From: Dyadobacter fermentans DSM 18053
GTDB lineage: Bacteria; Bacteroidota; Bacteroidia; Cytophagales; Spirosomataceae
Assembly (NCBI RefSeq): GCF_000023125.1
Contig: NC_013037.1
Coordinates: forward strand, 3,162,001-3,226,000
Length of the DNA stretch: 64,000 nt
Direction: 5' to 3'
The notes under the pieces were generated by a model that was not told the DNA's origin, did no database searches, and saw nothing but the letters and a program-made list of their open reading frames with translations. This document shows positions 3,384-61,253 of this stretch, piece after piece. Position 1 is the first letter of the stretch. Each line of letters opens with the position of its first letter. Position numbers and translations under genes: made by a program.

Positions 3384-4373
3384 CTAGTCGAGCATATTCC
3401 ATTCAGCCAGCCGGTCGCCCTGCTTCTCGACGAGCCAAACCTTGCTCCCTTTGAAACGTTTGAGATACCGTTTGCTCTTTTGAATACCCGCCACGCTAAA
3501 TGCCGTCGCAAGCGCGTCGGCAATGGTGCCATCGGGCGAGATGACGGTTGTACGTACGTGAAACAGCAGTCCGATACCCGTTTTAGGGTCGACAATATGC
3601 GAATAGCGCACGCCTTTGTATTCCATATACCGATAAGTGGGGCCGGAAGTAGCCAGCGCCACATTCGAGAGCTGCATGGCTGCCAGCGAATCGCTGCCGT
3701 TGGAGACATTGATGTTCCAACCCTTCGAGCCCGGCGGCGGGTTGGTCAGCACGATTTTTCCGCCTGCGTCCATCATCGCCGAAGTGATTCCCAGCTTTTG
3801 TAATTCCTTAATCGCCTCTTCCGCGGCGTAGCCCTTCCCAAGACCGCCAATGTCGAGCCTCATGCCCTTCTGGGTAAGCATAATGCTCCGTGTCCGGGCA
3901 TCCATTTTCATTTTGGTATAACCCGTGCGTGCCAATGCGTCGCGGATCTCGTCCTCCGGCGGGAAAATGCCTTTGCGCGTGGCACGCCGCCACATTTGCA
4001 CTACCGGCCCAAGGGTAGCATCGAAAACGCCGCCGGTTTTGGCGCTGATGTCCTGCGAAATGGCCAGGATATCGAAAAGGTCCTTGCTCACCGGCACCCA
4101 CTTGCCACTGCCCGAAGTCGCCGAAAGGCGATTGATCTCACTGCCGTCGCGGTAGTCGCTCATGATCTCGTTCAGCTCCTCCACCCTCCCAAACGCATTA
4201 TTGGCTGCGATACGGGCTATGGAATCGTTGGCTGCGTAAAACACCAGCTTGAACGGCGAGCCCATCAGGCCTTTTTCAAAAGTGTAGCGCAACTCCTGCG
4301 CCCATGAAGATGATGCGGAAACGGTGACAAAAAGAAGGAATAATAATCTGGAAAACCTTGAAAATAAAGCCAT
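3384..4373 (-). CDS. FAD:protein FMN transferase (ApbE family), first copy
   Basis: A 329-residue ApbE-type flavin transferase. It has a signal peptide ending at about residue 25 (ASSSWAQ), so it acts in the periplasm, where the family moves FMN from FAD onto a threonine of target proteins. Recognisable blocks are MSDYRDGSEINRLS near residue 70, GGVFDATLGPVVQMWR near 115, the glycine-rich LDIGGLGKGYAAEEAIK near 175, MDAGGKIV, and the metal-site region SHIVDPKTG near 258. No flavinylated partner is obvious nearby. A second, different ApbE gene lies at 53395 in the glycan locus. Confidence 0.9.
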   Translation of the reverse strand: MALFSRFSRLLFLLFVTVSASSSWAQELRYTFEKGLMGSPFKLVFYAANDSIARIAANNAFGRVEELNEIMSDYRDGSEINRLSATSGSGKWVPVSKDLFDILAISQDISAKTGGVFDATLGPVVQMWRRATRKGIFPPEDEIRDALARTGYTKMKMDARTRSIMLTQKGMRLDIGGLGKGYAAEEAIKELQKLGITSAMMDAGGKIVLTNPPPGSKGWNINVSNGSDSLAAMQLSNVALATSGPTYRYMEYKGVRYSHIVDPKTGIGLLFHVRTTVISPDGTIADALATAFSVAGIQKSKRYLKRFKGSKVWLVEKQGDRLAEWNMLD

Positions 4374-44556: not shown

Positions 44557-45723
44557 TTACCTGCACCGCTGCGACGACCCGCGTACGACCAGCTCTGTAC
44601 TCAGAACCCGCTTTTCGTTCACGATCGCCTCTTCGGCATCGACGAGCTGCAAGATCCATTCGGCGGTGGTGCGGCCGATTTGCATGGTTGGCTGGCGAAC
44701 GGTGGTGAGGCCCGGGCCGATGTACGCCGATTCTGCATTGTCGCTGAAACCGACCACCCCGAGTTCGTCGGGAATGGATATACCCTTTTCCCGGGCCATA
44801 AGCATGATTTCGATGGCCGACGAGTCGTTTACGGCAAAGATCGCGTCGGGGCGGTTGGCAAGGTCGAGGAGGTATTGGCCGTAAATGCGCGCTTTCTGCT
44901 GCGTGAGCATGCCCTGGATGATCATGTGATCGTCGATCGGCTTGCCGTATTTCTCCATCGCCGCACGGTATCCGCGGAGGCGCTCCTGACTTACCTGTAA
45001 AGTGAGCGGACCGCCCAAATGCGCAATGCGTTCGTAGCCATTCAGAATGAGGTGTTCTACCGCCCGGAACGACGCTTCGAAATCATTCACGACCACTTTC
45101 GGCACGTCGATCTGATCGCATACACGGTTGAACTGGATCAGTGGAATGCCGCGCTTGGCGAACACGCTCAGGTGGTCGAAGTTGTTGGTTTCCTGTGTAA
45201 GCGAAATCAGCAGGCCGTCGATGCGGTTGGCGAGCATGGCCTTTGTGTTCGATATCTCGACCTGGTATGACTCATTACTCTGCATGATCGTGAGGTTATA
45301 CCCGGCCTCCGTCAGCACCTCGTGCGCTCCGATGATCACATTGGGAAAGAACTGGTTCTGGAATTCCGGAACGATCATTCCAATAGTGTTGGTCTTGCTC
45401 TTAACCAGGCTGTAAGCGAGCTGGTTAGGCTGGTAATCCAGCTGAGCGGCTTTATCGAGCACCGCCTGGCGGGTTTCGGGACTGATGTCCGCATGGCCGT
45501 GCAATGCCCGCGAAACGGTCGAGTTGGATACGCCCAGCGACTTCGCAATATCGATAATGGTCGTCTGATGCCGCTTCCGCTTCACGAGCGATTCAATGGA
45601 GTCGTCCTTTTCGGCATGGGTGAAATAATAGTTACACCATTTGCACAGGTAGCGCTGCTTGCCTCTCACATAACCCGCTTTCATAATGCCGTCCACCTGC
45701 GCACACTTCACGCACTCGATCAT
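44557..45723 (-). CDS. LacI family regulator with an N-terminal zinc ribbon
   Basis: A 388-residue regulator. Residues 4-30 hold Cys4-x2-Cys7-x19-Cys27-x2-Cys30, a zinc ribbon of the kind found in IS1-type transposase InsA (GYVRGKQRYLCKWCNYYF). The LacI helix-turn-helix follows at about 52-100 (TIIDIAKSLGVSNSTVSRAL, hinge DYQPNQLAYSLVKSKTN). A periplasmic-binding-like sugar domain fills 105-388. It reads away from the susC operon, and a 32-base palindrome sits between them. It most likely controls that locus in response to a sugar. The extra ribbon is unusual for LacI. Confidence 0.9.
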   Translation of the reverse strand: MIECVKCAQVDGIMKAGYVRGKQRYLCKWCNYYFTHAEKDDSIESLVKRKRHQTTIIDIAKSLGVSNSTVSRALHGHADISPETRQAVLDKAAQLDYQPNQLAYSLVKSKTNTIGMIVPEFQNQFFPNVIIGAHEVLTEAGYNLTIMQSNESYQVEISNTKAMLANRIDGLLISLTQETNNFDHLSVFAKRGIPLIQFNRVCDQIDVPKVVVNDFEASFRAVEHLILNGYERIAHLGGPLTLQVSQERLRGYRAAMEKYGKPIDDHMIIQGMLTQQKARIYGQYLLDLANRPDAIFAVNDSSAIEIMLMAREKGISIPDELGVVGFSDNAESAYIGPGLTTVRQPTMQIGRTTAEWILQLVDAEEAIVNEKRVLSTELVVRGSSQRCR

Positions 45724-46066: not shown

Positions 46067-49000
46067 ATGAAGAAAAAGATACGTGACTTGTTCCTGCTCG
46101 GCTTCCTGTGCCTGGGCGTCATGCAGTCGCTGCTTGCGCAGACGAGCACCGTGAAAGGCAAGATAACCGACGACAAAGGCGAATCGATCCCCGGCGCGAG
46201 CATTACCGTGAAAGGCACCCAGCAAGGCACATTGGCCGACGCCGACGGTGTGTATTCCATCGACGTGGCGGGCAATGCAACCCTGGTGTTTTCTTTCCTC
46301 GGATATTTAAAAGAAGAAGTGAACGTCGCCAACCGCTCCACCGTGGATGTTTCATTGAAAACCGACACCAAAGCACTTGAAGAAGTGGTGGTGGTAGGGT
46401 ACGGAACCCAGCGGAAGATCGAAACGACTGGCTCCATTGCCTCCGTGAAAGCGGCCGATCTGGTGCAGACGCCCGTTGCCAACGTGGCGCAGGGCCTTCA
46501 ATCGCGAATCGCCGGTGTGCAAATCAACCAGAACACCGGTTCTCCGGGCGGGAACGTGAGCGTGCGTATACGAGGTACAAACTCTATAAACGGCTCATCC
46601 GAACCGCTTTACGTGGTGGATGGAATCCAGATCTCGAATGGCGGCGGCATCAACGACGTGAGCCCGCTTTCGACGATCAACCCGAATGATATCGAATCGG
46701 TGGAAGTATTGAAAGATGCCTCTGCATCAGCCATTTACGGCGCCCGCGCTGCCAACGGTGTGATCCTCATCACCACCAAACGTGGTAAAAGCGGCGCTAC
46801 CCGTGTCACCTATGACGGCTATTACGGCACCCAGAAAGTAAACAAAACGCTGAAAGTGCTCGATGCGGCCCAGTTTGCACAAGTTGAAAATGAGGTATTT
46901 AAAAACAATTACTACCCTGATCCCGCTTCCTTGGGCAAAGGTGTCGACTGGCAGGATGTAATTTTCCGCCGTGCACCGATCCAAAACCATCAATTGTCGA
47001 TCAATGGCGGTAACGAAAAAACGCAACTCGCGCTATCGCTCAACTATTTCGACCAGGAAGGCACGCTCCGCGGATCGGCTTTCACGCGCTATTCTTTCCG
47101 GCTCAATCTCGACCATCAGATCAGCAAGAGCATTAAAGTGGGAACAAGTATTCTGAGCAGCCATTCGATAGCGGACGGCATCCAGACCGGCAGCACCGAT
47201 ATCGGTAATGCAGGTGCCGTAACGCAAACCGTGCTCGGCGCAGCCATTGGCGCGCCCCCTACCCTGCAACCCTACCGTCCCGACGGCTCCATTTTCCCCT
47301 TCGGCGAGCAGGCGGGCGGGCAATACCGTGAGGTGGTAAACCCGCTCAATTTTACCGAAGTACTGAACAAAAGGGCGATCAAACGCATCCTGGCAAATGT
47401 TTACGCCGATTTCAGCCTGTTCAAGGGCCTGACTTACCGAGCCTCGTTCAACATTGACCAGAAAGGCGAGCTGTACGATTTCTATTCGCCCCGCTCGATC
47501 GTCAACAAAAGCGACCTGACCGACAATTCCGGAACGGGTGAAAAGGAGAATGTCAACGGGCTTGCACTGTTGCACGAAAGCATCCTTACTTACAGCACCA
47601 CATTCGCCAAAATCCATTCCTTCAAAGCCACTGCGGTATTCGGCACCCAGCTCGATCAGAACAACTGGAACAAAATGAATGCTACCGGCTTCCCTAACGA
47701 CGCCACACAAAATGAAGCCATGCAGCTGGCATTAACCCGCAATGTAAGCAGCTTTCGAAGCAGTCAACGCCTGGATTCTTACATGGCCCGTGTGAATTAC
47801 GGCTTCAAAGACAAGTTCTTCCTGGATCTCACGGCACGCGTGGACGGATCGAGCAAGTTTGGTGCAAACCACAAATACGGCGTTTTCCCGGCGGTTTCGG
47901 CTGCCTACCGCCTCATCGAGGAGCCGTTTATGAAGGACATTACCTGGCTTTCGGACCTGAAACTCCGGGGAAGCTACGGTATCACCGGTAATGCCGGCGG
48001 TATCGACCCTTACCAGTCCCTGGCCACCGTGGCGGCAAACGGCAGCAACTACATGATCAACCACGGCTACGTGACAGGCATTGACCCTACCCGCATCGCC
48101 AACCCCGATCTTCGCTGGGAGCGTTCGCAGCAGACCAACTTCGGGGTAGACGTGAGTTTGCTCAACAACCGGATCAGCGTCATTGCGGATGTTTATCATA
48201 AAAAAACCAATGACCTGTTGTATGTCAAAACGCTGCCGCTGAGCTCCGGCTACGGTACCATCACGGGTAACTATGCCGGCTTGCAGAACAAAGGGCTGGA
48301 ACTTGCCGTGAATGCACGCGTGCTCGACGGCGCATTGAAATGGGACGTATCGGCCAACACCACCATTAACCGCAACAAAGTACTCGGCCTCGACGGCGGC
48401 GTGACCAGCGAACGCTTCATCACCACTTACACGCTGTTGAAAGTCGGTGAGCCGCTGGGTGTTTTCAAAACTTATGTGTTCGACGGCATTAACCAAACGG
48501 GCGAAACCATTCTGCCAGGCTACGACGGCCGCGTAGGTGGCCACAAGGTGAAGGATGTCAACGGCGACGGCCAGATCACTTCAGCCGACCAGATGATTAC
48601 CGGCAATCCAAACCCGAAATTCATTTACGGCTTCTCGACCAATCTTTCGTACAAAGGATTTGACCTCGCCGCATTCCTGTCGGGCTCGCAGGGCAATGAC
48701 ATTTACAATGCCAGCCGCCTTTCATTCGAAAATCCCCTGGGACAGCGCAACCTGCTCGCGGGCGTGGCGGACCGTTGGTCGCCGACCAACCCCAGCAACC
48801 AGTATGTGAGCGGATTCCAGGGTGGCCGCCTGCCTATTACCAACTATGTAGTGGAAGATGGCTCTTATTTGCGCTGTAAAAACATCACGTTGGGTTACAC
48901 CATTCCGCGCTTCAAAGGCGTGCAGGGCATCCGCGTGTACGTGAGCGCAAACAACCTGTTCACCATCACGAATTACAGCGGTTTTGACCCCGAAGTGAAC

Positions 49001-49093
49001 ACCTATGCCGGCTCTAACACAGCCATCGGCATCGACAACTTCGTGTATCCGCAGGCGAAATCGTTCCTGGGCGGTATCCAGGTTTCATTTTAA
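46067..49093 (+). CDS. SusC/RagA family TonB-linked outer membrane transporter
   Basis: A 1008-residue protein with a signal peptide ending near residue 25 (SLLAQ). Order: a carboxypeptidase-regulatory-like domain (STVKGKITDDKGESIPGASI), a TonB box/plug (EEVVVVGYGTQRKIETTGSI, then RIAGVQINQNTGSPGGNVSV and VEVLKDASASAIYGARAANG), and a 22-strand barrel ending SFLGGIQVSF. It imports glycan fragments through the outer membrane, using TonB energy and a SusD lid. It is the first gene of the long forward operon and probably responds to the nearby LacI regulator. Confidence 0.97.
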   Translation: MKKKIRDLFLLGFLCLGVMQSLLAQTSTVKGKITDDKGESIPGASITVKGTQQGTLADADGVYSIDVAGNATLVFSFLGYLKEEVNVANRSTVDVSLKTDTKALEEVVVVGYGTQRKIETTGSIASVKAADLVQTPVANVAQGLQSRIAGVQINQNTGSPGGNVSVRIRGTNSINGSSEPLYVVDGIQISNGGGINDVSPLSTINPNDIESVEVLKDASASAIYGARAANGVILITTKRGKSGATRVTYDGYYGTQKVNKTLKVLDAAQFAQVENEVFKNNYYPDPASLGKGVDWQDVIFRRAPIQNHQLSINGGNEKTQLALSLNYFDQEGTLRGSAFTRYSFRLNLDHQISKSIKVGTSILSSHSIADGIQTGSTDIGNAGAVTQTVLGAAIGAPPTLQPYRPDGSIFPFGEQAGGQYREVVNPLNFTEVLNKRAIKRILANVYADFSLFKGLTYRASFNIDQKGELYDFYSPRSIVNKSDLTDNSGTGEKENVNGLALLHESILTYSTTFAKIHSFKATAVFGTQLDQNNWNKMNATGFPNDATQNEAMQLALTRNVSSFRSSQRLDSYMARVNYGFKDKFFLDLTARVDGSSKFGANHKYGVFPAVSAAYRLIEEPFMKDITWLSDLKLRGSYGITGNAGGIDPYQSLATVAANGSNYMINHGYVTGIDPTRIANPDLRWERSQQTNFGVDVSLLNNRISVIADVYHKKTNDLLYVKTLPLSSGYGTITGNYAGLQNKGLELAVNARVLDGALKWDVSANTTINRNKVLGLDGGVTSERFITTYTLLKVGEPLGVFKTYVFDGINQTGETILPGYDGRVGGHKVKDVNGDGQITSADQMITGNPNPKFIYGFSTNLSYKGFDLAAFLSGSQGNDIYNASRLSFENPLGQRNLLAGVADRWSPTNPSNQYVSGFQGGRLPITNYVVEDGSYLRCKNITLGYTIPRFKGVQGIRVYVSANNLFTITNYSGFDPEVNTYAGSNTAIGIDNFVYPQAKSFLGGIQVSF

Positions 49094-49134: not shown

Positions 49135-50628
49135 ATGAAAAAGCTACTGAAATTAACCACATACCTGGGCATGGCCGGCACCGCGCTGATCGCCCCCTCG
49201 TGCCAGCTGGATGAAACGATTTATTCGTCTATCTACACGGAAGCATTCTATAAAACCGCCGCGGATGCGGAAAAAGGGCTGATCTCCGTTTACGGCGCAT
49301 TGGGCAGCCTGGGCGGCGGTCCCGCGTTGACGCTCGTCGGCGATTTCAGCGACGACCAGACCTACCCGCGCGCCGTGGTGGGCCGCAACACGCTCACGCA
49401 GTTTACCTACGACGTGAACTACACCACCCAGAAAAGTAATTCCCGCCTCAACGAATCGCCGCAGCAGATTTGGCAATCGTGCTACAACGGCATCGAAAAA
49501 GCGAACTGGGTGATTGCCAAGGTGCCGGATGCCAACATGGACGAGACGCGCAAGAAGCAGATCATTGGTGAAGCGTACTTCCTGCGGGCGTTTTACCATT
49601 GGTTTTTGAGTAAAAATTTCGGGGACATCCCGGTTAAAATCACCCCAAGCTACACCGAAGCCGAAGCGTCGACAGCCAAAAGCCCCAAAGCGGACGTGTA
49701 CAAACAAATTTACGCCGACCTCGATCAGGCTTTGAATGCCGGGCTCGTGTCGTACCCCAATGTGGAGAAAGGCCGCGTTGCTAAGGAAGTGGTGAATGCA
49801 TTGTATGCCAAAGCTGCCCTGTATAATGAAGACTGGGCCAAAGCGCTGGAACAAGCCAAGGTGGTCATCAACTCAGGCAAATATGTGCTCATGACTGATG
49901 TGCGCGACGTTTACAAATATGACCAGGAAGATGTTGCACGCATTGAAAACATGTGGGCATACGAGGCAGACCCTGTGTCGCCGGGCCTCGGCCACCAGCT
50001 GACGGGCCTCTGCGGTCCTTCGGGAAGTGCCGGCGCGGAATATGCCCGTACCTCGTATGGCTCGATGTTCGCCTACCAGGCATTCTTCGATTCGTTCGAC
50101 CCGGCCGACAAACGCCGGACTTTGCTGGACACCACCTACATCGACAAAGCCGGCAAAGTGGTTCCGCAGCGAAGCATCACGCCCATCACGACAAAGGGTG
50201 TGCTCATTAAAAAGTATCAGGACCCTGTTTCGACTGTGGGACTGATCCCGAACATCCCGATCTTCCGCCTGCCCGACATGTACCTCATCGCCGCCGAAGC
50301 GGAAGCCCGCCTGAACGGCGCCACGTCGGCCGCGTACGGTTTCGTGAATCCAGTGCGGAAGCGTGCAGGCCTTCCGGAACTAAAAACCGGCCTCACCAAG
50401 GACGCATTCATCGAGGCAGTATTGCAAGAGCGCGCCTGGGAGTTTTTCGCAGAAGGCGACCGCTGGTATGACCTTACCCGCACCGGCAAATTCCTGACCG
50501 TGATCCCGAAAGCGGTAAACGACGTGTACCCGACCCGCAACGTTACCGCCAAAAACAGGTATTTCCCCATCCCGCTGGATGAAATCATCGCCAATACGAA
50601 GCTGGAACAGAATCCTGACTGGAAATAA
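49135..50628 (+). CDS. SusD/RagB family surface glycan-binding lipoprotein
   Basis: A 497-residue surface lipoprotein. The signal ends in a lipobox near residue 23 (LIAPSCQLDE). The SusD helical (TPR-like) plan is seen in IWQSCYNGIEKANWVIAKVP, GEAYFLRAFYHWFLSKNFGD, VVNALYAKAALYNEDWAKAL, and the C-terminal RLPDMYLIAAEAEARLNGAT with AVLQERAWEFFAEGDRWYDL. It forms the lid of the SusC transporter. It lies 41 bases after susC. Confidence 0.97.
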   Translation: MKKLLKLTTYLGMAGTALIAPSCQLDETIYSSIYTEAFYKTAADAEKGLISVYGALGSLGGGPALTLVGDFSDDQTYPRAVVGRNTLTQFTYDVNYTTQKSNSRLNESPQQIWQSCYNGIEKANWVIAKVPDANMDETRKKQIIGEAYFLRAFYHWFLSKNFGDIPVKITPSYTEAEASTAKSPKADVYKQIYADLDQALNAGLVSYPNVEKGRVAKEVVNALYAKAALYNEDWAKALEQAKVVINSGKYVLMTDVRDVYKYDQEDVARIENMWAYEADPVSPGLGHQLTGLCGPSGSAGAEYARTSYGSMFAYQAFFDSFDPADKRRTLLDTTYIDKAGKVVPQRSITPITTKGVLIKKYQDPVSTVGLIPNIPIFRLPDMYLIAAEAEARLNGATSAAYGFVNPVRKRAGLPELKTGLTKDAFIEAVLQERAWEFFAEGDRWYDLTRTGKFLTVIPKAVNDVYPTRNVTAKNRYFPIPLDEIIANTKLEQNPDWK

Positions 50629-50642
50629 AGTTATCGAAATCA

Positions 50643-51584
50643 ATGCTGATCGCCCAAGCGCTTTTATTCCTGGCAACACTCCTATCCGCCCCTTTTCCCG
50701 ACAGGCAAAAGGGGCGGGTCAGGGAGTTCACGGTCACGGAAAACGACACATTGACCTACACCTTGAAACTCGCGCTCGACGACAAGGGACAGCCGCAGTA
50801 TTTTTTCAGGAACATTTTCACACCGGTTTGCTACACCAATGAATGCAAACCGGTGTATATCAATTTTTACTGGGATTTACTCGGCAACTATCAGCGTTTC
50901 GACCTGCCTGAGGGCAAAGTACTTACGAAAGTCGATCACGACGAATTTAAAGAAGAAGACTACCAGAAGTTGCAGGATATCCTGACCCAAAACAATTCCA
51001 TTTTCGCAGACCTCAAAATGGAAGACCTGATTACCAAGGGAACGGACAACCTCACCGATTCGGTAGACGCCAAAGCGGGTGCGACATTAAAAACCATCAA
51101 AAACCAGGTTATCGACGGCGCCGTTTACACCTGCTATACATTGTGGCACATCGCCTATGGCAGAGCCGTGCCCGAAATGCGGAAAATCATCGAAGCATAT
51201 TCGAATGATGTCCTGCTGCACCGGTTTCTGGAAAGCAAAAACCACCATTATCAGTACTGGGCGATGGCCAAAGTAGTGAATGCGAACGGCCAGGTGAGCA
51301 AGCCGTTCGAGAAGGATATCGAGGGGATTATTGCCGGGAAGAACGGCTTTATTGCCAAATATGCCTTGCAGCAGGTGGGAAGCGATTTTTTCAAAGGCGC
51401 CGACCGGCAAAACTGGCTTTGGGATACTTACCTCAAAACCGGCTACGCAATGCAGGTGGCGATTCTCAAAAAAATGACGGAACTGCAACTCGCCAAACCG
51501 GTTACTGCCCGGCTGAAAGAGAGCCTGGCCAATGCCAATGAAGAACAAACCAAATTGATCAACAGCATTTTAACAAAACAATAA
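50643..51584 (+). CDS. Secreted protein with an FMN-binding-like AGAT motif, candidate flavinylated carrier
   Basis: A 313-residue protein with a signal peptide (MLIAQALLFLATLLSAPFPD). Residues about 40-160 include CYTNECKPVYINFYWDLLGN, then VDAKAGATLKTIKNQVIDGA. D142-x-x-A-G-A-T148-L-K-T matches the D-x-x-(S/T)-G-A-T-x-x-(S/T) pattern at which ApbE attaches FMN, except that Ala replaces the first Ser/Thr. Thr148 would be the modified residue. ATYTYTLWH-like sequence follows (VYTCYTLWHIAYGRAVPEMR). Helical C-terminal half. Sits between susD and a secreted FAD oxidoreductase with apbE two genes on, which supports the flavin idea. Carrier role is inference. Confidence 0.6.
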   Translation: MLIAQALLFLATLLSAPFPDRQKGRVREFTVTENDTLTYTLKLALDDKGQPQYFFRNIFTPVCYTNECKPVYINFYWDLLGNYQRFDLPEGKVLTKVDHDEFKEEDYQKLQDILTQNNSIFADLKMEDLITKGTDNLTDSVDAKAGATLKTIKNQVIDGAVYTCYTLWHIAYGRAVPEMRKIIEAYSNDVLLHRFLESKNHHYQYWAMAKVVNANGQVSKPFEKDIEGIIAGKNGFIAKYALQQVGSDFFKGADRQNWLWDTYLKTGYAMQVAILKKMTELQLAKPVTARLKESLANANEEQTKLINSILTKQ

Positions 51585-51585
51585 A

Positions 51586-53388
51586 ATGAAGAAAACGCTC
51601 CTGGCAGTATGCATGATCCTGTCGCTGTTGCCCGCGATGGCGCAAAACCATGTGTTTGTGGAAACCGAATCCTTCGAAGACAAAGGCGGCTGGGTGATTG
51701 ACCAGCAGTCGTTTGTCGTGATGCACTCCTCCTACCTGATGGCCCACGGAATGGGCCGGCCGGTGAAAGACGCGACTACCACGGTAAAACTGCCTAAAAC
51801 CGGAAAGTATCGCATGTGGGTGCGTACCAAAGACTGGGCACCATTCCCGAAAGGCCCCGGCAAGTTCCAGGTCGTGATCGACGGCAAATCCACCGGACAG
51901 ACGTTCGGTGAAAGTGGCTCGGATGCCTGGAAATGGTACGACGGCGGCGTGATCGAAACGAAAAGTGCGGATATGAAACTGGCATTAAAAGACCTCACGG
52001 GCTTCAATGGCCGCTGCGACGCACTGCTATTCACCGACGACCTGAAATTTACCCCTCCCAATGAGCTGGAACCGCTCACCGCATTTCGCAGAAAGCTCCT
52101 CAACCTGACCGACAAGCCACAAGACGCAGGCCGCTACGACCTCGTGGTGGTAGGCGGCGGCATTGCCGGGACCTGCGCGGCCATTTCGGCAGCGCGCATG
52201 GGCCTCACCGTAGCCCTGATCCAGGACCGCCCCGTGCTCGGTGGAAATAACAGTTCCGAAGTGCGCGTGCATTTGATGGGCGACGTCGACAAAAACCATT
52301 ACCCCAAACTCGGACGCATTGTGCGCGAAATGGACAACGGCGATCCCGGCAATGGTAACCCCGATGCCAAAGAATACGGCGATGCGCGCAAAATCGCGAT
52401 TGTTAAAGCCGAAAAGAACATTTCGCTATTCCTGAACACCCACGTTTTTAAAGTAGAAAAAGAGAACGACATTATCACCGCGGTGGTCGGCCGGGACATT
52501 GCTACCAACCAGGAGCGCCGCTTTTCCGGCTCGTTCTTCTCAGACTGCACGGGCGACGGCACGGTGGGCTTCCTCTCCGGCGCCGAATTCCGCATGGGCC
52601 GCGAAAGCAAGGCTGAAACGGGCGAGTCGCTGGCGGCGGAAAAGTCCGACGATTTCACATTGGGAACTTCCAATTTGTGGGCTTCGCTCGATCGCGACAC
52701 TGTTTCGTCCTTCCCTGAAACGCCCTGGGCCATGCAGTTCTCCGACGAATACCACATCGACGAGCCCAAATCCGACTGGCAATGGGAAACCGGTTTTGGG
52801 AATTTCAACACCATTACCCAGGCCGAACAGATCCGCGACCATAACCTGCGCGCCATTTACGGTAACTGGTCTTATCTGAAGAAAAACAAAGCGGCCAAAT
52901 ACGGCAAAAAGGAACTCGCCTGGGTGGCTTACATCGGCGGCAAGCGCGAGTCGCGCCGCATTATCGGGGATTATGTTCTGAACCAAATGGATATCCAGGA
53001 AGGCAAGTTTTACCCCGACGGCTCGGTGACCGCCACCTGGACCATCGACCTGCATTTCCCGGATGCCAAAAACAGCAAGTATTTCGAAGGGCAGGAGTTT
53101 TTCGCGGGCACCAAGCACATCAAAGTAGCGCCCTACACGATCCCCTACCGTTGTTTGTATTCCAAAAACATCCAAAACCTGTTTATGGCCGGCCGAAACA
53201 TCAGCACTACGCACGTGGCATTCGGAAGCACGCGGGTGATGCGGACTTGCGGGATGATGGGCGAGGTGGTAGGCTTTGCGTCCTACATCGCTAACAAATA
53301 CAAAACCAGCCCGCGCGGCGTGTACAAAGACCATTTGCCCGAACTCACCGGAATTTTGAAAGGCGAAACCCTCGCTCCGCAGCCCTGA
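51586..53388 (+). CDS. Secreted FAD-dependent oxidoreductase with N-terminal beta domain
   Basis: A 600-residue protein with a signal peptide ending near residue 20 (LLPAMAQ). Residues about 22-155 form a jelly-roll-like domain resembling carbohydrate-binding modules. The Rossmann FAD loop VVVGGGIAGTCAAISAARMG follows near residue 186, then ALIQDRPVLGGNNSSEVRVH. The C-terminal part carries RCLYSKNIQNLFMAGRNIST and THVAFGSTRVMRTCGMMGEV, as in the FAD_oxidored (PF12831-like) family. The substrate is unknown, perhaps a sugar. Starts two bases after the candidate flavin carrier gene. A cytoplasmic paralogue is at 61301. Confidence 0.85.
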   Translation: MKKTLLAVCMILSLLPAMAQNHVFVETESFEDKGGWVIDQQSFVVMHSSYLMAHGMGRPVKDATTTVKLPKTGKYRMWVRTKDWAPFPKGPGKFQVVIDGKSTGQTFGESGSDAWKWYDGGVIETKSADMKLALKDLTGFNGRCDALLFTDDLKFTPPNELEPLTAFRRKLLNLTDKPQDAGRYDLVVVGGGIAGTCAAISAARMGLTVALIQDRPVLGGNNSSEVRVHLMGDVDKNHYPKLGRIVREMDNGDPGNGNPDAKEYGDARKIAIVKAEKNISLFLNTHVFKVEKENDIITAVVGRDIATNQERRFSGSFFSDCTGDGTVGFLSGAEFRMGRESKAETGESLAAEKSDDFTLGTSNLWASLDRDTVSSFPETPWAMQFSDEYHIDEPKSDWQWETGFGNFNTITQAEQIRDHNLRAIYGNWSYLKKNKAAKYGKKELAWVAYIGGKRESRRIIGDYVLNQMDIQEGKFYPDGSVTATWTIDLHFPDAKNSKYFEGQEFFAGTKHIKVAPYTIPYRCLYSKNIQNLFMAGRNISTTHVAFGSTRVMRTCGMMGEVVGFASYIANKYKTSPRGVYKDHLPELTGILKGETLAPQP

Positions 53389-53394
53389 TGGATT

Positions 53395-54435
53395 TTGAAT
53401 AGCATTACATTACATATTGCCGGAGTAATATCCACTTTCCTTACCGTGCTGCCATTGGCGACAATGGCGGCCACGGCTGTGGATTCCATGGTTTCGATTG
53501 ATGGCGAAGCGCAGGGCACTACGTATCATATCCGCTATTTCGATCCCAAAAACAGGAATTTCAAGCATTCGATCGACTCGATATTAACTGAATTTGACAA
53601 ATGCCTGTCGCTCTACCGGCCTGATTCAGAACTATCTGCATTCAACACCAATGGGCAGCATCGCTTCCGTTCGCAATGGTTTTATGAGGTTTTGAGTAAA
53701 TCAAAAGAAATCCATGAAGCAACGGGCGGCGCATTTGATCCTACGATCATGCCGCTTTCGGAGGCTTATGGTTTTGGAAATAAAAAGAATACCGATCCTG
53801 AAAATGCGAACATCGATTCACTGCTGTCTCTGATTGGTTTTAAACAAATTGAATTCAATGAAAAGGAAGTTCAGGCACGGCCGGGCGTGAAACTGGATTT
53901 CAACGGCATTGCACAGGGCTATTCCGTGGATATCCTCGGCGCATTCCTGAAAAGCCTTGGTATCGACCGGTTTATGGTCGAAATCGGTGGAGAAGTGCTT
54001 TGCTCGGGCTTCAAAACTGGCGGAAAGCCTTGGGTAACCGGCATCGAAAATCCGCTTAAAACCAATGCCCTCGCCGCGACGGTCCGGCTCACCGACCGCG
54101 CCATGACCACCGCCGGCAACTACCATAACCACATTATCCGCAACGGCATCACCTACAACCACATCATCGACCCTCGGACCGGCGGCCCGCGACCCGGCGG
54201 CCGGCGATCCGGAGCGCCGGAACAGCCCCTGCTGCTGAGCGTGACGGTGTTTGCCCAGGATGCCATTACCGCCGACGGCTACGACACGGCATTTTTCGTG
54301 ATGGGCCTGGAAGCTACCAAAACCTTTCTGAAAAACCGGAAAGATATGGACGTGTACATGCTTTACACCAATGAGGAAGGGCAATTAATGTCCTTCGCAA
54401 CAGACGGTATCAAAGATTTTATTGAGGAAAAATGA
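53395..54435 (+). CDS. FAD:protein FMN transferase (ApbE family), glycan-locus copy
   Basis: A 346-residue ApbE protein. It seems to start at TTG 53395, seven bases after the upstream stop; this retains the signal peptide (HIAGVISTFLTVLPLATMAA). ApbE blocks are GEAQGTTYHIRYF, FDKCLSLYRPDSELSAFNTN, GGAFDPTIMPLSEAYGFGNK, KLDFNGIAQGYSVDILGAFL, VEIGGEVLCSG and the metal-site NHIIDPRTGG, then VTVFAQDAITADGYDTAFFV. It would add FMN to a Thr of an exported protein. Its stop overlaps the next gene by four bases, so it is firmly in the operon. Confidence 0.92.
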   Translation: MNSITLHIAGVISTFLTVLPLATMAATAVDSMVSIDGEAQGTTYHIRYFDPKNRNFKHSIDSILTEFDKCLSLYRPDSELSAFNTNGQHRFRSQWFYEVLSKSKEIHEATGGAFDPTIMPLSEAYGFGNKKNTDPENANIDSLLSLIGFKQIEFNEKEVQARPGVKLDFNGIAQGYSVDILGAFLKSLGIDRFMVEIGGEVLCSGFKTGGKPWVTGIENPLKTNALAATVRLTDRAMTTAGNYHNHIIRNGITYNHIIDPRTGGPRPGGRRSGAPEQPLLLSVTVFAQDAITADGYDTAFFVMGLEATKTFLKNRKDMDVYMLYTNEEGQLMSFATDGIKDFIEEK

Positions 54436-57026
54436 AAAGAATAACCCTGCTAATACCCGTTTTACTGAACATTCTGACCGTTCTTCCGGCCCCGGCCCAA
54501 CAGGGTGCGCAACGGACGTCCGTGAAAGCGCTGGCCAATAATTCCGTACGCGTGCAATGGCGCGAAACGGACGGTGCCATGAAAATCGAAGAGGTATCGG
54601 TGAACAAAAAAGGCCAATGGAGTAAGCTCGCGGCACCGTCCGGCGAGTACACGCTGCTTTATTCAGAAACCAAACCTTCGACCGAATCAGCCGAAACATT
54701 TGAAAAAATCACCGGTGGAAAATTCCCGGAAGACGCCTACCATTACCAGCAGGTGCAATGGAAAGAAAGCACCACCGGCGTGGCATTGAACACCGCCGGC
54801 AAGGCCATCCACTTTTTCCCGAAAACCGGCGAAGCGAAAGACAATGGCCTGGAATTCAAATCCGAAACCGACGTCGCGAACGTCACCGCGCATTGGAAAC
54901 TCGACCCGCGCTTCCCGAACGACGTGCTGGTAACCCTTACGTTGCAGGCTAAAAAGCAGGGTTTCTTCTCGCTGGCGACGCCTACTTTGGCCGCACTGCC
55001 CGTGGAGCAGATGAGCTGGGTGTCGGTGCCGGGCTATTTTCAGGGGAATTTTATGCAAAAGAACTTTGCATTGGCCTATGCTTACGGCCACGGCGTGCCC
55101 GACCGCCCGGCGGTGTACCGCGAACGTTGTGCGTCTACATTAAGTCCGCTTGTCAGCAACAAGGACGGCATTACCTGGTCGGTGGTGCCGGAGCCCGGTC
55201 TCGCGCGTGACCCGTGGGCGAAGGACCAGATCACGCAGATAGACTGGCACCTGGGGCTCTCGCATATGAACCGCAAGGCGCAGCTCTCGCCTACCTTATA
55301 TTACCCCGTGCTGGGAGAAGACAAGTCCGAAATGCAGGCCGGGCAGTCGGTTTCCTACACCTTTAGGTACAGCATGATCGCCGGCGACTGGTTCGAGGCG
55401 ACCAAGCACGCGGCCATTGACATATACAAATTCCGCGAAACACTCGCACTCCGCCAGAGCAAACAGGCGCTCACCGACCGCATCGAGAAAATGCACCATT
55501 ACCTCACCGACCCTAAAACGTCGCTGTGGAACATCGAGGAATTCAAAGGCAAGCAAATCGGCGCCCAATCGTACCTCGGCGGTGTGGTAGGCTCGAACAA
55601 GGATGCCATGAAAAACTCGGATTACGGCGCGATGTGGATGCTTGCCAATGCCACCAATGATCCGGAACTGACCGAAAAAGTGCTTCCTCCCGCCGAGAAC
55701 TTCAAACTTGTGCAGCAGCAAACCGACGAAGGTTTTTTCAAAGGTGCCGTGGAAGGCCAGTATTATTTAGCCAAAAAGAAAACATTCGTAGAAGAATGGG
55801 GTGAGGTGGTGGAACCCATCGCGCTGACCTACTATGTGATGCTCGATGTGGGCAATATGCTGCTTTTCGAGCCGGATAATGCCGAATTGAAGGAACGCCT
55901 CAAACTAGGCGCCGAGAAACTGCTCAGCTGGCAGCGCCAGGACGGCAGCTTTGCCGTTGCGTACGACCGCAAAACCGAGCAGGAAATTTTCAAGGACATT
56001 CAGGATGTGCGGCCTACATTTTACGGGTTAATCGTCGCACACCGGATTCTCAAAGACGAGAAATACCTCAAAGCCGCCGAAAAAGGAGCCGACTGGTTCC
56101 TGAAAAACGCCGTGCAAACCGGTGCCTTCCTGGGCGTGTGCGGAGACGCGCGCTACGCCCCCGATTTTGCCACAGGCCAGTCGGCACAGGCATTGCTGGA
56201 TTTGTTTGATTTAACCCAAAACAAAAAATACCAGGAAGCGGCCGTGACCTGCGCGAAAATTTACACCTCATCCATTTACACGCACCCCATAGCCGATCGC
56301 CAGCCCAAAACGGTGAACGGAACGGCGCGGGAGGATTGGGAGATCAGCCAAACAGGCCTCAGCTTCGAGCATGGCGGCATTTTCGGTTCGGCAACGCGGC
56401 ACGGACCTATCCAGCTTGCGAGTCACGCCGGACTGTTCATCCGCATTTACCAGCTCACCGGCGAGCAGCTTTTTGCCGATATGGCCCGCGCTGCCGCCAT
56501 TGGCCGCGATGCGTTTGTGGATAGCAAAACTTCCGTGGCATCCTACTATTGGAACGCCATGAACCGCGGCGCCGGCCCCTACCCGCACCACGCGTGGTGG
56601 CAGGTGGGCTGGATCACCGATTACCTGCTTTCGGAAGCGGCATTGCGTTCGAATGGCAAAGTTTCGTTCCCGCGCGGCTTCGTAACACCGAAAGTGGGCC
56701 CGCACCAAACGTACGGTTTCGCGCCGGGCGAGGTGTTCGGCGACAAAGCGAACCTGATAATCCGGGAAGGCTTTGCAGTAGCCGACAGCCCGTCCATCGA
56801 CCCGATCATTTCAAAATCGACCACCAAAAACATTTACTACATCACGCTGCTCAACAACAGCCCGCAGCCGACGGCCTTCAACCTCAAAATCGACCACAAC
56901 AAAATATCCGAAAATAACCCGCCCGTAACCATAAAATGGGCCGAAACGAACCAGAAAGCGGCCATTACCAATATCAAACTGCCGGCATTCGGTAGCAGAA
57001 CGTTGGTTTTAAGCTATAAGCTTTAG
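54432..57026 (+). CDS. Large exported putative glycosidase with (alpha/alpha)6-like domain
   Basis: An 864-residue protein with a signal peptide ending near residue 22 (LPAPAQQ). Residues about 25-310 are beta-rich. Residues about 340-740 look like a helical six-hairpin glycosidase domain: LGVVGSNKDAMKNSDYGAMW, EKLLSWQRQDGSFAVAYDRK, FLGVCGDARYAPDFATGQSA, QTGLSFEHGGIFGSATRHGP. A final beta domain of about 100 residues closes the protein. The GH family is not recognised. Similar proteins are sometimes called glycerophosphodiesterases, which the domain plan does not support. Starts within the apbE stop (ATGA). Confidence 0.65.
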   Translation: MKRITLLIPVLLNILTVLPAPAQQGAQRTSVKALANNSVRVQWRETDGAMKIEEVSVNKKGQWSKLAAPSGEYTLLYSETKPSTESAETFEKITGGKFPEDAYHYQQVQWKESTTGVALNTAGKAIHFFPKTGEAKDNGLEFKSETDVANVTAHWKLDPRFPNDVLVTLTLQAKKQGFFSLATPTLAALPVEQMSWVSVPGYFQGNFMQKNFALAYAYGHGVPDRPAVYRERCASTLSPLVSNKDGITWSVVPEPGLARDPWAKDQITQIDWHLGLSHMNRKAQLSPTLYYPVLGEDKSEMQAGQSVSYTFRYSMIAGDWFEATKHAAIDIYKFRETLALRQSKQALTDRIEKMHHYLTDPKTSLWNIEEFKGKQIGAQSYLGGVVGSNKDAMKNSDYGAMWMLANATNDPELTEKVLPPAENFKLVQQQTDEGFFKGAVEGQYYLAKKKTFVEEWGEVVEPIALTYYVMLDVGNMLLFEPDNAELKERLKLGAEKLLSWQRQDGSFAVAYDRKTEQEIFKDIQDVRPTFYGLIVAHRILKDEKYLKAAEKGADWFLKNAVQTGAFLGVCGDARYAPDFATGQSAQALLDLFDLTQNKKYQEAAVTCAKIYTSSIYTHPIADRQPKTVNGTAREDWEISQTGLSFEHGGIFGSATRHGPIQLASHAGLFIRIYQLTGEQLFADMARAAAIGRDAFVDSKTSVASYYWNAMNRGAGPYPHHAWWQVGWITDYLLSEAALRSNGKVSFPRGFVTPKVGPHQTYGFAPGEVFGDKANLIIREGFAVADSPSIDPIISKSTTKNIYYITLLNNSPQPTAFNLKIDHNKISENNPPVTIKWAETNQKAAITNIKLPAFGSRTLVLSYKL

Positions 57027-57137: not shown

Positions 57138-58850
57138 ATGAACAATACCACCGATACCATTGTCATTCTCGTTTTCTCCGCATTCGTGATGGGCATTGGG
57201 ATGCTTTTTGCCCGGACGGGGCGCAATTTGAAATCATTCTTCGCCGGCGGTGAGGCCGTGCCATGGTTCATTGGCGGGCTCTCGCTTTTTATGAGCTTCT
57301 TCTCGGCGGGCACCTTCGTGGCGTGGGGTTCCATTGCCTACAAGCACGGCTGGGTGGCCATCACCATTCAATGGACAATGTGCATCGGCGCGCTCATTAC
57401 CGCCCTTTACCTTGCGCCGCGCTGGAAACGCACCGGCGCATTAACCGCCGCAGAGTTCATTCGCGAGCGGCTCGGACTGTCGGTGCAGAAGACCTATATC
57501 TTCATTTTTACACTTGTTTCAGTGTTTATCAAAGGTTCGGTGCTGTACCCGGTTGCCAAGCTGGTGAGCGCTTCGCTGGACTTGCCGCTTGTGCCTTGTA
57601 CCATTGGTTTGGGGCTTTTTATGATTGCCTACACCGCTGTGGGCGGACTGTGGGCGGTGATGGTGACGGACATTCTGCAATTTGTGGTGCTGTCGGCGGC
57701 GGTGTTCATCCTGCTGCCACTGTCGTTCAACAAAGTGGGCGGCTGGGAAGGCTTCACCAACAACATCCCCGATGACTTTTTCAACCTGCTCAATGGCGAA
57801 TACACCCTGGGCTTCGTGGCCGCATTTGTGATTTACCACATTTGCTACATCGGCGGCAACTGGACGATGGTGCAGCGCTACACGAGTGTGGATAGTGAAA
57901 AATCCGCCAAAAAAGTGGCGTTCCTTTTCGCTGGCCTGTACCTGATCAGTCCGGTGATCTGGATGTTCCCGCCGATGATCTACAAGGCCATTAACCCCGC
58001 ACTCACCGGCCTGGACACCGAAAACGCCTACCTCATGATCTGCAAGCTCGTGCTCCCTCCCGGCTTGCTCGGGCTGATGCTCACGGGCATGTACTTCTCC
58101 ACCTCCGCCAGCGCCAACACGGCATTGAACGTCGTATCCGCGGTTTTCACGAATGACATTTATAAAGGGATGGTCAACCCCGCCGCCTCCGACCGCCAGC
58201 TCATCCGTGTAGCGCGGGGCTCGTCGTGGTTTTTCGGGCTGGGCATGATCGGCATCGCATTGCTGGTACCGGCCGCGGGCGGCATTGTGGAAGTAGTGCT
58301 CAGCATATCGGCCATCTCGGGCGGGCCGCTGCTAGCGCCGCCGCTTTGGGCCTTGTTTTCCAAACGCCTCAACGGCCGAATCACGCTATGGATCACGGGA
58401 ATCGGGCTTTGCGTGAATTTGTTTTTCAAAACCCTCGCCCCGCTCCTGCTGGATTTCAAACTGTCGCGCGGGATGGAAACGATTGTGGGCGTAGGGCTGC
58501 CGCTGCTGCTTTTGCTCGCCTACGAACTTTGGGCACGCTCTAAAAACAAGGTGGCTGATGAATTCACCAGCTACATGCATTCCAAAGACCAGCGCAAACA
58601 GGAAGCCACCGCTGTGGATGCCGAAGAAGCATTTGAGATCAAAAAGCAAAACCGCTTCGGCTTGCAGGTAATCGCCGGCGCATTGCTATTCACAGCAGTG
58701 ATGTTATTTATCCTGAGCGTGTTGACAACCGACGGAAAGATGGTAACGGCAGGTGTGGCAACGGTGGTGCTGATTTCCGCAGCGATACCGTTTTCCGCGG
58801 CGCGGAAGGTGGTGCTGGTGCGGGAAGACGAGACGCGGGTTGCCGCGTAG
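57138..58850 (+). CDS. Sodium:solute symporter (SSS family)
   Basis: A 570-residue cytoplasmic membrane transporter with about 13-14 membrane segments. SSS blocks include LKSFFAGGEAVPWFIGGLSL, FMSFFSAGTFVAWGSIAYKH, PVAKLVSASLDLPLVPCTIG, TAVGGLWAVMVTDILQFVVL, and LLGLMLTGMYFSTSASANTA. It couples Na+ entry to uptake of a small solute, probably the sugar released by the locus. A cytoplasmic linker with charged residues (residues 470-505) precedes the last helices. It is separated from the preceding gene by the inverted repeat. Confidence 0.94.
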   Translation: MNNTTDTIVILVFSAFVMGIGMLFARTGRNLKSFFAGGEAVPWFIGGLSLFMSFFSAGTFVAWGSIAYKHGWVAITIQWTMCIGALITALYLAPRWKRTGALTAAEFIRERLGLSVQKTYIFIFTLVSVFIKGSVLYPVAKLVSASLDLPLVPCTIGLGLFMIAYTAVGGLWAVMVTDILQFVVLSAAVFILLPLSFNKVGGWEGFTNNIPDDFFNLLNGEYTLGFVAAFVIYHICYIGGNWTMVQRYTSVDSEKSAKKVAFLFAGLYLISPVIWMFPPMIYKAINPALTGLDTENAYLMICKLVLPPGLLGLMLTGMYFSTSASANTALNVVSAVFTNDIYKGMVNPAASDRQLIRVARGSSWFFGLGMIGIALLVPAAGGIVEVVLSISAISGGPLLAPPLWALFSKRLNGRITLWITGIGLCVNLFFKTLAPLLLDFKLSRGMETIVGVGLPLLLLLAYELWARSKNKVADEFTSYMHSKDQRKQEATAVDAEEAFEIKKQNRFGLQVIAGALLFTAVMLFILSVLTTDGKMVTAGVATVVLISAAIPFSAARKVVLVREDETRVAA

Positions 58851-58873: not shown

Positions 58874-59060
58874 CATGCCTTACGGCATTTTTTGAACAGC
58901 AATTAGCCCATTTGATCCTACCAATATTACATCCCTGACGGGATTTTACTTGGAAAGTCCAATACGCCTTCGGCTCACATTAACGGCGGCGAGTCCCGTA
59001 AGGGACGCAACATTGGTAGCAATATGAAGTGTGGATATGGTAAAAATGCCGTCAGACATG
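58874..59060. repeat. MITE-like nested inverted repeat element
   Basis: Outer arms 58874-58893 (CATGCCTTACGGCATTTTTT) and 59041-59060 pair with few mismatches. Inner 27-base arms at 58918-58944 (CTACCAATATTACATCCCTG) and 58993-59019 (ending GGGACGCAACATTGGTAG) also pair. No ORF is inside. The arms contain CCCTGACGGGAT-type sub-palindromes, as in REP/MITE families. It lies in the 297-base gap between symporter and GH2 genes. Whether it is repeated elsewhere in the genome cannot be seen here. Confidence 0.75.
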
Positions 59061-59147
59061 CAACAGCAATACGAACGGGATGACGCGGGAATTAAATTAA
59101 AAATCAACCTCTCAAAAAACATAATCACAACCGAAAGACATCACATA

Positions 59148-61253
59148 ATGAAACGCTTAACTCTTTTAGCCTCTTCCCTCCTGCTCACATTAACATGCAC
59201 GCAACTTGCAGCCCAGCCGGGTGCGGCCCAGCCGAATGCGGCCCAGCCGAATGCGGCCCAGCCGGGTGCAGCCCAGCAGAACGCGCCCCGTTACCACATT
59301 CGGCAGCATGATGCCATTCCGCTGCATGGCGAATGGTGGTTCCTGCTCGATCCGGCCGGGTTGGGGATGGCCAATGAATGGTACAAGGGCATTAATGCGC
59401 AGGAGAGCCGGCAGGATAAGGTGACGGTGCCGCATTGCTTTTCGACCGACCGCCGCTACGAGTTTTACTCGGGAATGGCCTGGTACCGCAAGAATTTTGC
59501 CTGGAAGAAAACGACCGGCAAACGCGTAATCCTGCATTTTGACGGAGCTTATTACCAAACCAATGTGTGGGTGAACGGCCAGAAAGTGGGCGAGCATGAG
59601 GGCGGCTACACGCCGTTCAGCTTCGATGTGACGGAGCAGCTGAAAGATGGCGATAACCTGCTCGTGGTGGCGGTGGATAATGATACCTGGAAAACGAACA
59701 CGATCCCGGGCATTAAGGACACCGGCAATGTGAATGATGGATTTATTGGCTGGGTGAACTACGGCGGCATCATCCGCCCGGTTTACCTGACGATCGAACC
59801 GGAGGTGTATGCCGAAAACGTGAAGATCGAACCAATTCCCGATCTGGCGAAGGGTACGGCGGTGGTGAAAGCTAAAATCCGCGTGCGCAATGCCTCTGGC
59901 GCTGCGGCTACCCCGAAAATGGCGTTCGTCGTTTCGCAGGAGACCAAGCCTCTGCCTTTAAAATGGAAGACCAATGCAGCGAGCATTCCGGCAGGCCGGA
60001 CTGCGATTCTGGAAGCGGAAGCGACGTTGACAGCCGCTCAGACGAAGCTTTGGGACCTCGATCAGCCCAATTTGTATGAATTAAAAACGATCGTGGGCAC
60101 GGATACGCTCGCTTCGAATTTCGGCATCCGGGAAGTGAAAGTGAGTGGCACGCAGATCCTTTTGAATGGCAAACCCATTAAAGTCGGCGGCGGAAACCGG
60201 GTGATCGATTACCCCGGCCTGGGGTCGGTGGAGCCGGACTGGCTGATCGAAAAAGATTTCAAATTGATGAAAGAGGCCGGTATGGAATTTCAACGCCTCA
60301 CGCATTACACACCTTCGGAATACTTCTACGACCTCGCCGACCGCTATGGGATGCTCATCATCACCGAGGCCGGTAACTGGCAGCTCACACCGAAGCAAAT
60401 GGATAACGATTCGATGCGTACGAAGTTCCGATCGCAATTCCGCGAAATGGCCGAGCGCGACTGGAACCACCCGAGCGTGATCGCATACAGCGTCGGCAAC
60501 GAATATCAGTCGACGACTGCTTCGGGCCAGCGCTGGACGAAGGACATGATCGCCTACGCCCGCGAGCTCGATCCCACACGCCTGTACACCTTCGCAACCA
60601 TGCTGCTGAATCGGTTGCCCGCCAAACCGGAGGATGAGGCGAGCCAGTATGTCGATTTTGTATCAACCAATACCTACGGCGGCCATGCCAAATCCCTGGA
60701 CCACATCAATAAGCTCTATCCCAACAAGCCGGTGTTCATCAGCGAATGGGGCACGCGGTCGGACGGCAAAGGCGGCGAAGCGGGACAAGCGCAGCATTTG
60801 AGTGATGTAATGGTGGAAATCCGTAAGCGACCGTTTGTGGTCGGCGCTTCCTGGTGGACTTATAACGATTACCGCAGCAAGCTGTTCGGCACGAATGTAA
60901 ATGGCTTCCGGCCGTGGGGCATCGTGGGGCCTGAGCGTCAGGAGCGGCTTGCCTACCCCGTACACCAGAAGGAGTTTTCCCATGTGATTGTGGAAAAAGC
61001 CAGCTTCAAAACAGGCGACCAGGGAGTGCATCAACTGGTGCTGAAAGTGACTTCGCGGGGCGACTTCCCGGCGCGGCCTATCAAAAACTATACTATGAAT
61101 GTGGGCGAAACCAGCATTGCATTACCCGAAATCAACCCCGGTGAAAGCAAGGAAATTACCGTTCCGATCCGCGGGTTCGACAAGCAAATCCACATCACCG
61201 TGAGCAAACCGACCGGTTTCATTACCACCCAAACTGACATTGACCTCAACTGA
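59148..61253 (+). CDS. Glycoside hydrolase family 2 (beta-glucuronidase/galactosidase type)
   Basis: A 701-residue enzyme from ATG 59148 (MKRLTLLASSLLLTLTCTQL, signal peptide). Five AQPxA units follow the cleavage site. The sugar-binding domain includes YRKNFAWKK and YYQTNVWVNGQKVGEHEGGY. A beta-sandwich follows, then the barrel with the acid/base Glu452 in YSVGNEYQS and nucleophile Glu533 in FISEWGTRSD. These match GH2 enzymes such as beta-glucuronidase, -galactosidase or -mannosidase. The exact substrate is not certain. It follows the MITE-like element and precedes the second FAD oxidoreductase by 47 bases. Confidence 0.93.
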   Translation: MKRLTLLASSLLLTLTCTQLAAQPGAAQPNAAQPNAAQPGAAQQNAPRYHIRQHDAIPLHGEWWFLLDPAGLGMANEWYKGINAQESRQDKVTVPHCFSTDRRYEFYSGMAWYRKNFAWKKTTGKRVILHFDGAYYQTNVWVNGQKVGEHEGGYTPFSFDVTEQLKDGDNLLVVAVDNDTWKTNTIPGIKDTGNVNDGFIGWVNYGGIIRPVYLTIEPEVYAENVKIEPIPDLAKGTAVVKAKIRVRNASGAAATPKMAFVVSQETKPLPLKWKTNAASIPAGRTAILEAEATLTAAQTKLWDLDQPNLYELKTIVGTDTLASNFGIREVKVSGTQILLNGKPIKVGGGNRVIDYPGLGSVEPDWLIEKDFKLMKEAGMEFQRLTHYTPSEYFYDLADRYGMLIITEAGNWQLTPKQMDNDSMRTKFRSQFREMAERDWNHPSVIAYSVGNEYQSTTASGQRWTKDMIAYARELDPTRLYTFATMLLNRLPAKPEDEASQYVDFVSTNTYGGHAKSLDHINKLYPNKPVFISEWGTRSDGKGGEAGQAQHLSDVMVEIRKRPFVVGASWWTYNDYRSKLFGTNVNGFRPWGIVGPERQERLAYPVHQKEFSHVIVEKASFKTGDQGVHQLVLKVTSRGDFPARPIKNYTMNVGETSIALPEINPGESKEITVPIRGFDKQIHITVSKPTGFITTQTDIDLN
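59211..59285 (+). repeat. 15-base minisatellite at the GH2 mature N-terminus
   Basis: Five tandem 15-base units based on GCCCAGCCGGGTGCG encode AQPGA/AQPNA repeats right after the signal peptidase site. The fifth has diverged (GCCCAGCAGAACGCG). Copy number could change without breaking the frame. Confidence 0.9.

What the first reader, a model, noticed from the sequence alone, without database searches (positions are those of the whole stretch)
50643..54435. Possible extracytoplasmic flavin redox module built into a SusC/SusD glycan locus
Within one operon, susD is followed by a secreted protein with a flavinylation-like AGAT motif, a secreted FAD oxidoreductase and an exported ApbE. ApbE is known to attach FMN to Thr in motifs of exported proteins. 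The order suggests that ApbE flavinylates its operon neighbour, which then exchanges electrons with the secreted FAD enzyme during glycan oxidation or reduction. Flavinylated carriers of this kind are established for RnfG/NqrC; such a carrier inside a polysaccharide locus is uncommon in my knowledge.
Basis: partly seen in the sequence, partly recalled or inferred. Interest (0 to 1): 0.88.

Follow-up and report, generated by a model that had tools for sequence, protein, structure and literature searches.

The report
Probable flavin carrier in glycan locus
A glycan-uptake operon of a Dyadobacter-like bacterium encodes a small exported protein that very probably carries a covalently fixed flavin and exchanges electrons with the secreted enzyme made by the next gene; the protein belongs to a family without a name in the databases searched that recurs beside such enzymes in Bacteroidota.

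Summary
An operon reads susC, susD, a 313-aa exported protein (X313), a secreted PF12831 FAD oxidoreductase, apbE and further glycan genes. X313 has no Pfam or NCBIfam family but belongs to a large Bacteroidota family in which Asp142 and Thr148 (the predicted FMN acceptor) are identical in 240 of 240 aligned homologues; the Gly of 'GAT' is not. The N-terminal half is predicted to resemble NqrC/RnfG (FMN_bind fold, moderate scores); the rest is HEAT-like. The strictest partner is the PF12831 enzyme: same strand, under 1 kb away, in 79 of 80 loci; SusC is held in 69 and apbE in 32. Genomes examined for it always had an ApbE somewhere. Many loci also hold a sodium:solute symporter and a leaderless PF12831 twin. 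Best reading: a flavinylated electron carrier, an undescribed class of ApbE substrate, accepts electrons from a secreted sugar or glycan dehydrogenase. Flavinylation, substrate, electron direction and membrane partner are inferred, not shown. I found no description in the papers I could search. New variant of a known kind.

The parts
44557..45723 (-). LacI-family regulator, divergent from the operon
   Evidence: PF00532/PF00356; LacI relative in 44 of 80 related loci
46067..49093 (+). SusC/RagA TonB-dependent outer-membrane transporter
   Evidence: TIGR04056 E 1.1e-264
49135..50628 (+). SusD-like glycan-binding protein
   Evidence: PF07980 E 1.1e-32, PF14322 E 2.4e-20
50643..51584 (+). X313: exported protein; N-terminal FMN_bind-like domain (res. 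~25-172) plus C-terminal HEAT/armadillo-like helices (res. ~175-312); predicted ApbE substrate
   Evidence: signal-like N-terminus read by eye; AF2 model pLDDT 91, pTM 0.83; N-domain matches RnfG/NqrC; 240/240 homologues keep Asp142 and Thr148
51066..51086 (+). predicted flavinylation motif DAKAGAT, Thr148 = FMN acceptor (codon 51084-51086)
   Evidence: sequence; conservation; motif definition from PMC12052999. Model confidence here is low: mean pLDDT 64 for residues 141-150
51586..53388 (+). secreted FAD oxidoreductase, PF12831 at residues 185-580; predicted redox partner of X313
   Evidence: PF12831 E 1.4e-74; a PF12831-type relative lies within 1 kb of X in 79 of 80 loci
53395..54435 (+). 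ApbE, FAD:protein FMN transferase, signal-like N-terminus
   Evidence: PF02424 E 1.7e-73
54432..57026 (+). large protein with signal-like N-terminus, weakly GH127-like, overlaps apbE by 4 nt
   Evidence: PF07944 E 4.3e-05, just under cut-off
57138..58850 (+). sodium:solute symporter (SSF)
   Evidence: PF00474 E 2.8e-36; SSF relative in 57 of 80 loci
59031..61253 (+). GH2-type glycoside hydrolase
   Evidence: PF02836/PF02837
61301..63574 (+). second PF12831 oxidoreductase, no signal peptide by eye: probable cytosolic twin
   Evidence: PF12831 E 1.3e-100; N-terminus MIIGESTHKREPK; similar twins listed

Best explanation
X313 is an exported electron carrier. ApbE, made by the same operon, attaches FMN to Thr148 outside the cytoplasm. 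The neighbouring secreted PF12831 flavoenzyme oxidises a sugar or glycan-derived substrate captured by SusC/SusD and hands the electrons from its FAD to the FMN of X313, which takes the place that a cytochrome or FMN_bind protein takes in other extracytoplasmic redox enzymes. The HEAT-like C-terminal half probably docks the enzyme. The product enters the cytosol, perhaps through the SSF symporter, where a leaderless PF12831 twin acts on it. X313 passes its electrons to a respiratory component encoded elsewhere. SHOWN BY COMPUTATION: gene order, family conservation, invariant Asp/Thr, FMN_bind-like predicted fold, near-obligate pairing with PF12831-type enzymes, ApbE in the genomes examined. 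INFERRED: covalent FMN, electron transfer between the two proteins, oxidation rather than reduction, glycan substrate, membrane partner, import of the product.
Confidence: 0.62

Rival explanations
1. X313 is flavinylated but works in the other direction: it delivers electrons to the FAD enzyme, which reduces a substrate, as in flavinylated fumarate and urocanate reductases.
For: PMC8238504 section 16 describes flavinylated domains feeding electrons to extracytosolic fumarate-reductase-like enzymes; the FAD enzyme has weak hits to flavocytochrome c and urocanate reductase chains.
Against: Those hits cover only the FAD-binding motif (residues ~176-223) and are mixed with many other flavoproteins. 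The loci are glycan-uptake loci of bacteria that I recall as mostly aerobic, where oxidation is more natural. Not tested.
Confidence: 0.2
2. X313 is a non-redox partner (scaffold or chaperone) of the PF12831 enzyme. The Asp/Thr motif is a relic or structural feature and ApbE is a hitch-hiker.
For: The C-terminal half is HEAT/armadillo-like; Gly of the motif is lost in a subfamily; apbE is absent locally in 48 of 80 loci.
Against: Asp and Thr stay identical in 240/240. In 31 of the 32 loci with cis-apbE the ORF map shows it directly after the enzyme (L123 only by distance). FMN_bind-like fold.
Confidence: 0.11
3. The operon's ApbE flavinylates some other protein and only happens to sit here.
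For: ApbE also occurs in the 7 same-genus genomes without X.
Against: None of 10 other proteins of the locus has D..[ASTG][GS][AS][TS]. The genome has no FMN_bind and no DUF3570; its one DUF2271 protein sits beside another ApbE.
Confidence: 0.07

Closest known systems
NqrC / RnfG (FMN_bind, PF04205)
   Same: exported flavin carrier with Thr acceptor in D-x-x-[ST]-G-A-T; predicted fold of the N-domain
   Different: no Pfam FMN_bind match; AGAT in the window; invariant VC-x4-C and K-x2-H-x2-F; extra HEAT-like half; partner is a soluble PF12831 enzyme, not a membrane redox pump
Flavinylated fumarate / urocanate reductases (PF00890 plus FMN_bind)
   Same: extracytoplasmic FAD enzyme working with a covalent FMN module (PMC8238504 section 16)
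   Different: there the FMN domain is often fused to a PF00890 enzyme that works reductively; here separate genes, PF12831, glycan locus
DUF2271 / DUF3570 ApbE substrates
   Same: ApbE substrates recognised by gene neighbourhood and then confirmed by co-expression (PMC8238504 section 7)
   Different: other sequence families; X313 matches neither in Pfam; the X-family is not confirmed by experiment
Periplasmic sugar dehydrogenases with cytochrome subunits (glucoside 3-dehydrogenase, gluconate 2-dehydrogenase; recalled, from no call)
   Same: secreted FAD enzyme with dedicated electron-accepting subunit
   Different: GMC-type enzymes and haem carriers there (recalled); PF12831 and a flavin carrier here

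Membership tests
FMN_bind (PF04205) | match to the Pfam model over its cut-off | tested here: not met
   no match for X313; 5 of 84 family members match, best E 0.075
FMN_bind (PF04205) | FMN_bind fold | tested here: met
ApbE substrate | motif D-x-x-[S/T]-G-A-[S/T] | tested here: inconclusive
   window has DAKAGAT (Ala at position 4); strict motif in 64/120 and 74/120 homologues of two searches; Asp and Thr 240/240
ApbE substrate | exported to the same side as ApbE | tested here: inconclusive
   signal-like N-termini read by eye in X313, FAD enzyme and ApbE; no signal-peptide predictor available
ApbE substrate | ApbE present in the genome | tested here: met
   4 in this genome; 9 of 9 X-positive genomes of the phylum sample
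ApbE substrate | covalent FMN on Thr/Ser | not testable with these tools
   needs protein
PF12831 FAD_oxidored | Pfam match over cut-off across the domain | tested here: met
   252 bits, model 1-408 of 416
SusC/SusD glycan locus | susC-susD pair with carbohydrate-active enzymes and regulator | tested here: met
   TIGR04056, PF07980, PF14322, GH2, LacI, SSF

The most novel reading that the evidence does not exclude
Bacteroidota possess a general, undescribed mode of oxidative glycan use: dedicated secreted PF12831 dehydrogenases, each paired with its own FMN-tethered FMN_bind-HEAT carrier in place of a cytochrome, wired into SusC/SusD loci and coupled by a symporter to a cytosolic PF12831 twin. 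The invariant VC-x4-C pair may add a second redox centre beside the flavin. A Gfo/Idh/MocA enzyme with a built-in ApbE-like site in the same genome would be a second, independent use of the same solution.
Probability: 0.4. Interest if true: 0.82.

Novelty: new variant of a known kind. Interest (0 to 1): 0.7.

Why it matters
[quoted passage not shown] A family found in many Bacteroidota, including a genome with four apbE genes and no FMN_bind protein, would fill part of that gap. It would also tie flavin-based electron transfer to polysaccharide breakdown and give secreted PF12831 enzymes of glycan loci an electron acceptor. That makes their substrates assayable: the flavin of the partner would report turnover.

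Tried and rejected

Literature: flavinylation + ApbE + SusC: 4 papers, unrelated by title and abstract; 10 papers, listing; ApbE + polysaccharide utilization + flavin: 0; 0; PF12831: 1, a Brucella flavoproteome; ApbE + SusD: 0; 0; 15, listing; 6, listing. PMC8238504: outline, sections 7, 11, 16, 19, 23 and a term search read (polysaccharide, Bacteroid-, glycan, carbohydrate: 0 occurrences each); PMC11334425: outline, section 5 and a term search; PMC12052999 and PMC10628242: passages only. Supplements could not be read, so the gene-cluster tables of PMC8238504 may contain these loci. Preprints and most subscription papers are not held.

Full report
THE LOCUS. The window lies in a 6.97-Mb genome whose closest named relatives are Dyadobacter. 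The order is susC, susD, X313, FAD oxidoreductase, apbE, a weakly GH127-like protein, an SSF symporter, GH2, then a second PF12831 protein, with a divergent lacI upstream. Genes from susD to the GH127-like gene are 14, 1, 6 and -4 nt apart, which fits one transcript.

THE FAMILY. A search of 5.8 billion proteins gave 313 homologues of X313 at E <= 0.001, of which 120 are listed. A distant same-genus member as query gave 139, 120 listed. None of these 240 listed proteins has a precomputed Pfam domain. In alignments of each listed set with X313, Asp142 and Thr148 are identical in 240 of 240, as are Lys96, His99 and Trp168; Cys63 and Cys68 in 238 (two gaps). Position 146 is Gly in 120/120 of the first set, but Gly 76, Ala 33, Ser 9, Arg 2 in the second; position 147 is Ala except for one Val. 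In an alignment of 84 chosen diverse members the invariant positions are C63, C68, H99, F102, D142, A147, T148, Y162, L167, W168. So the residue that receives FMN in known substrates is among those this family preserves most.

NEIGHBOURS. One conserved peptide pattern found 195 relatives in GTDB genome contigs; the best 80 were kept, so they are not independent and lean to close relatives. Their titles name Dyadobacter, Larkinella, Spirosoma, Rudanella, Runella, Chitinophaga, Parapedobacter, Olivibacter, Cyclobacterium, Flexithrix, Flavilitoribacter, Maribellus, Draconibacterium and others. A PF12831-type relative (tblastn with five window or same-genus enzymes) lies within 1 kb on the same strand in 79 of 80, downstream in 70 and upstream in 9; SusC is held in 69, SusD in 59, apbE in 32. 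The exception, L142, has its X beside a DPP-IV peptidase and genes that look like an efflux set (by eye). In 20 same-genus ortholog loci (L025-L044) X and the enzyme are adjacent in 20 of 20, with apbE labelled in 17. In 20 further same-genus loci, mostly paralogues (L045-L064), they are adjacent in 18 by the script, plus L055 whose X the script missed; L049 has two genes between. Eight loci from seven further genomes of a 296-genome phylum sample all have a PF12831-type gene beside X or separated only by apbE (Pfam-checked for six). This genome has 24 PF12831 matches, 7 of them long; both of its X genes sit beside one. Partner enzymes of 600, 632, 454 and 1054 aa are all PF12831; several have twin-arginine-like N-termini (RRDF, RRK, read by eye), which would fit export of a folded flavoprotein.

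APBE. This genome has 4 ApbE, no FMN_bind, no DUF3570 and one DUF2271; the last lies in a cluster with another ApbE and a PepSY protein, the arrangement described in PMC8238504 section 11. All 9 X-positive genomes in the sample have ApbE, against 192 of 296 overall; one of the nine, G345, is a doubtful 23-bit X hit. All 36 other same-genus genomes have ApbE, 29 of them with X. In 31 of the 32 loci with cis-apbE the ORF map puts it directly after the enzyme; L123 was miscalled and shows it by distance only. In the phylum-sample locus L184 it lies between enzyme and X. In two Dyadobacter loci without apbE (L073, L084) the gap after the enzyme holds apbE-like scraps at chance-level E-values (0.47 and 0.15); they may or may not be remnants.

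MECHANISM. Known flavinylated domains link membrane redox components to exported enzymes. The invariant acceptor, the fold and the pairing with an exported FAD enzyme that occurs on either side of X support a two-protein FAD-FMN relay. Fifty-seven of 80 loci also hold an SSF relative, and 39 of 79 hold more than one PF12831-type gene when tblastn intervals are merged. Of 32 enzymes of the second type listed, all but one (L068, a miscalled ORF) begin without a signal peptide by eye; several are cut by the end of the locus. This suggests a pathway split across the membrane: a step outside, import, a related step inside. The substrate is unknown. GH2, fucosidase and GH76 genes nearby and a sulfatase in one Cyclobacterium locus (L107) point to plant or algal glycans but differ among loci.

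AGAINST. Flavinylation is not measured. The window's AGAT departs from the published motif at one position, and a subfamily lacks the Gly. ApbE is often not local. No membrane acceptor is in the operon. Fold scores are moderate, and the motif itself is modelled with low confidence. NOVELTY. No paper found in the searches named under Tried and rejected describes it; the supplementary tables of the main survey could not be read. I rate it a new variant of a known kind: flavinylated extracytosolic electron transfer, with an undescribed substrate family and a new enzyme partner.

Noticed in passing
L182:10445-11656 (G000:C1:1641947-1643155): A Tat-like Gfo/Idh/MocA oxidoreductase beside another apbE and a SusC/SusD pair carries DGVTGAT. 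All 14 close orthologues (this one included, 82-100% identity) keep DGV[TS]GAT, 11 of 14 with apbE adjacent in the short flanks held; the Gfo/Idh reading frames of the 16 distant relatives fetched with them showed no such motif. Possibly an enzyme that carries its own FMN site.
   Followed up: partly
window 3384-4373 (-): A further apbE in the same window, about 41 kb from this operon.
   Followed up: no
window 61301-63574: Leaderless PF12831 twin downstream of GH2; similar twins in related loci, often after an SSF symporter.
   Followed up: partly
window 51072-51074 and loci L065-L144: Third residue of the flavinylation motif is basic (K/R/H) in all 32 loci with cis-apbE, in 10 of 48 without; may mark ApbE-substrate co-adaptation or only phylogeny.
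   Followed up: partly
window 50829-50846 (X313 residues 63-68): Invariant VC-x4-C pair between two predicted strands; disulfide or redox pair unknown.
   Followed up: no
L104:15313-16599: A PepSY_TM protein, a family linked to flavinylation gene clusters, lies a few genes from an X-PF12831 pair; may belong to the next operon.
   Followed up: no
window 44557-45723 (-): The LacI regulator has an N-terminal extension resembling IS1/IS1595 transposase zinc-binding domains (NCBIfam NF050000, 26.6 bits, just under its cut-off of 28).
   Followed up: no
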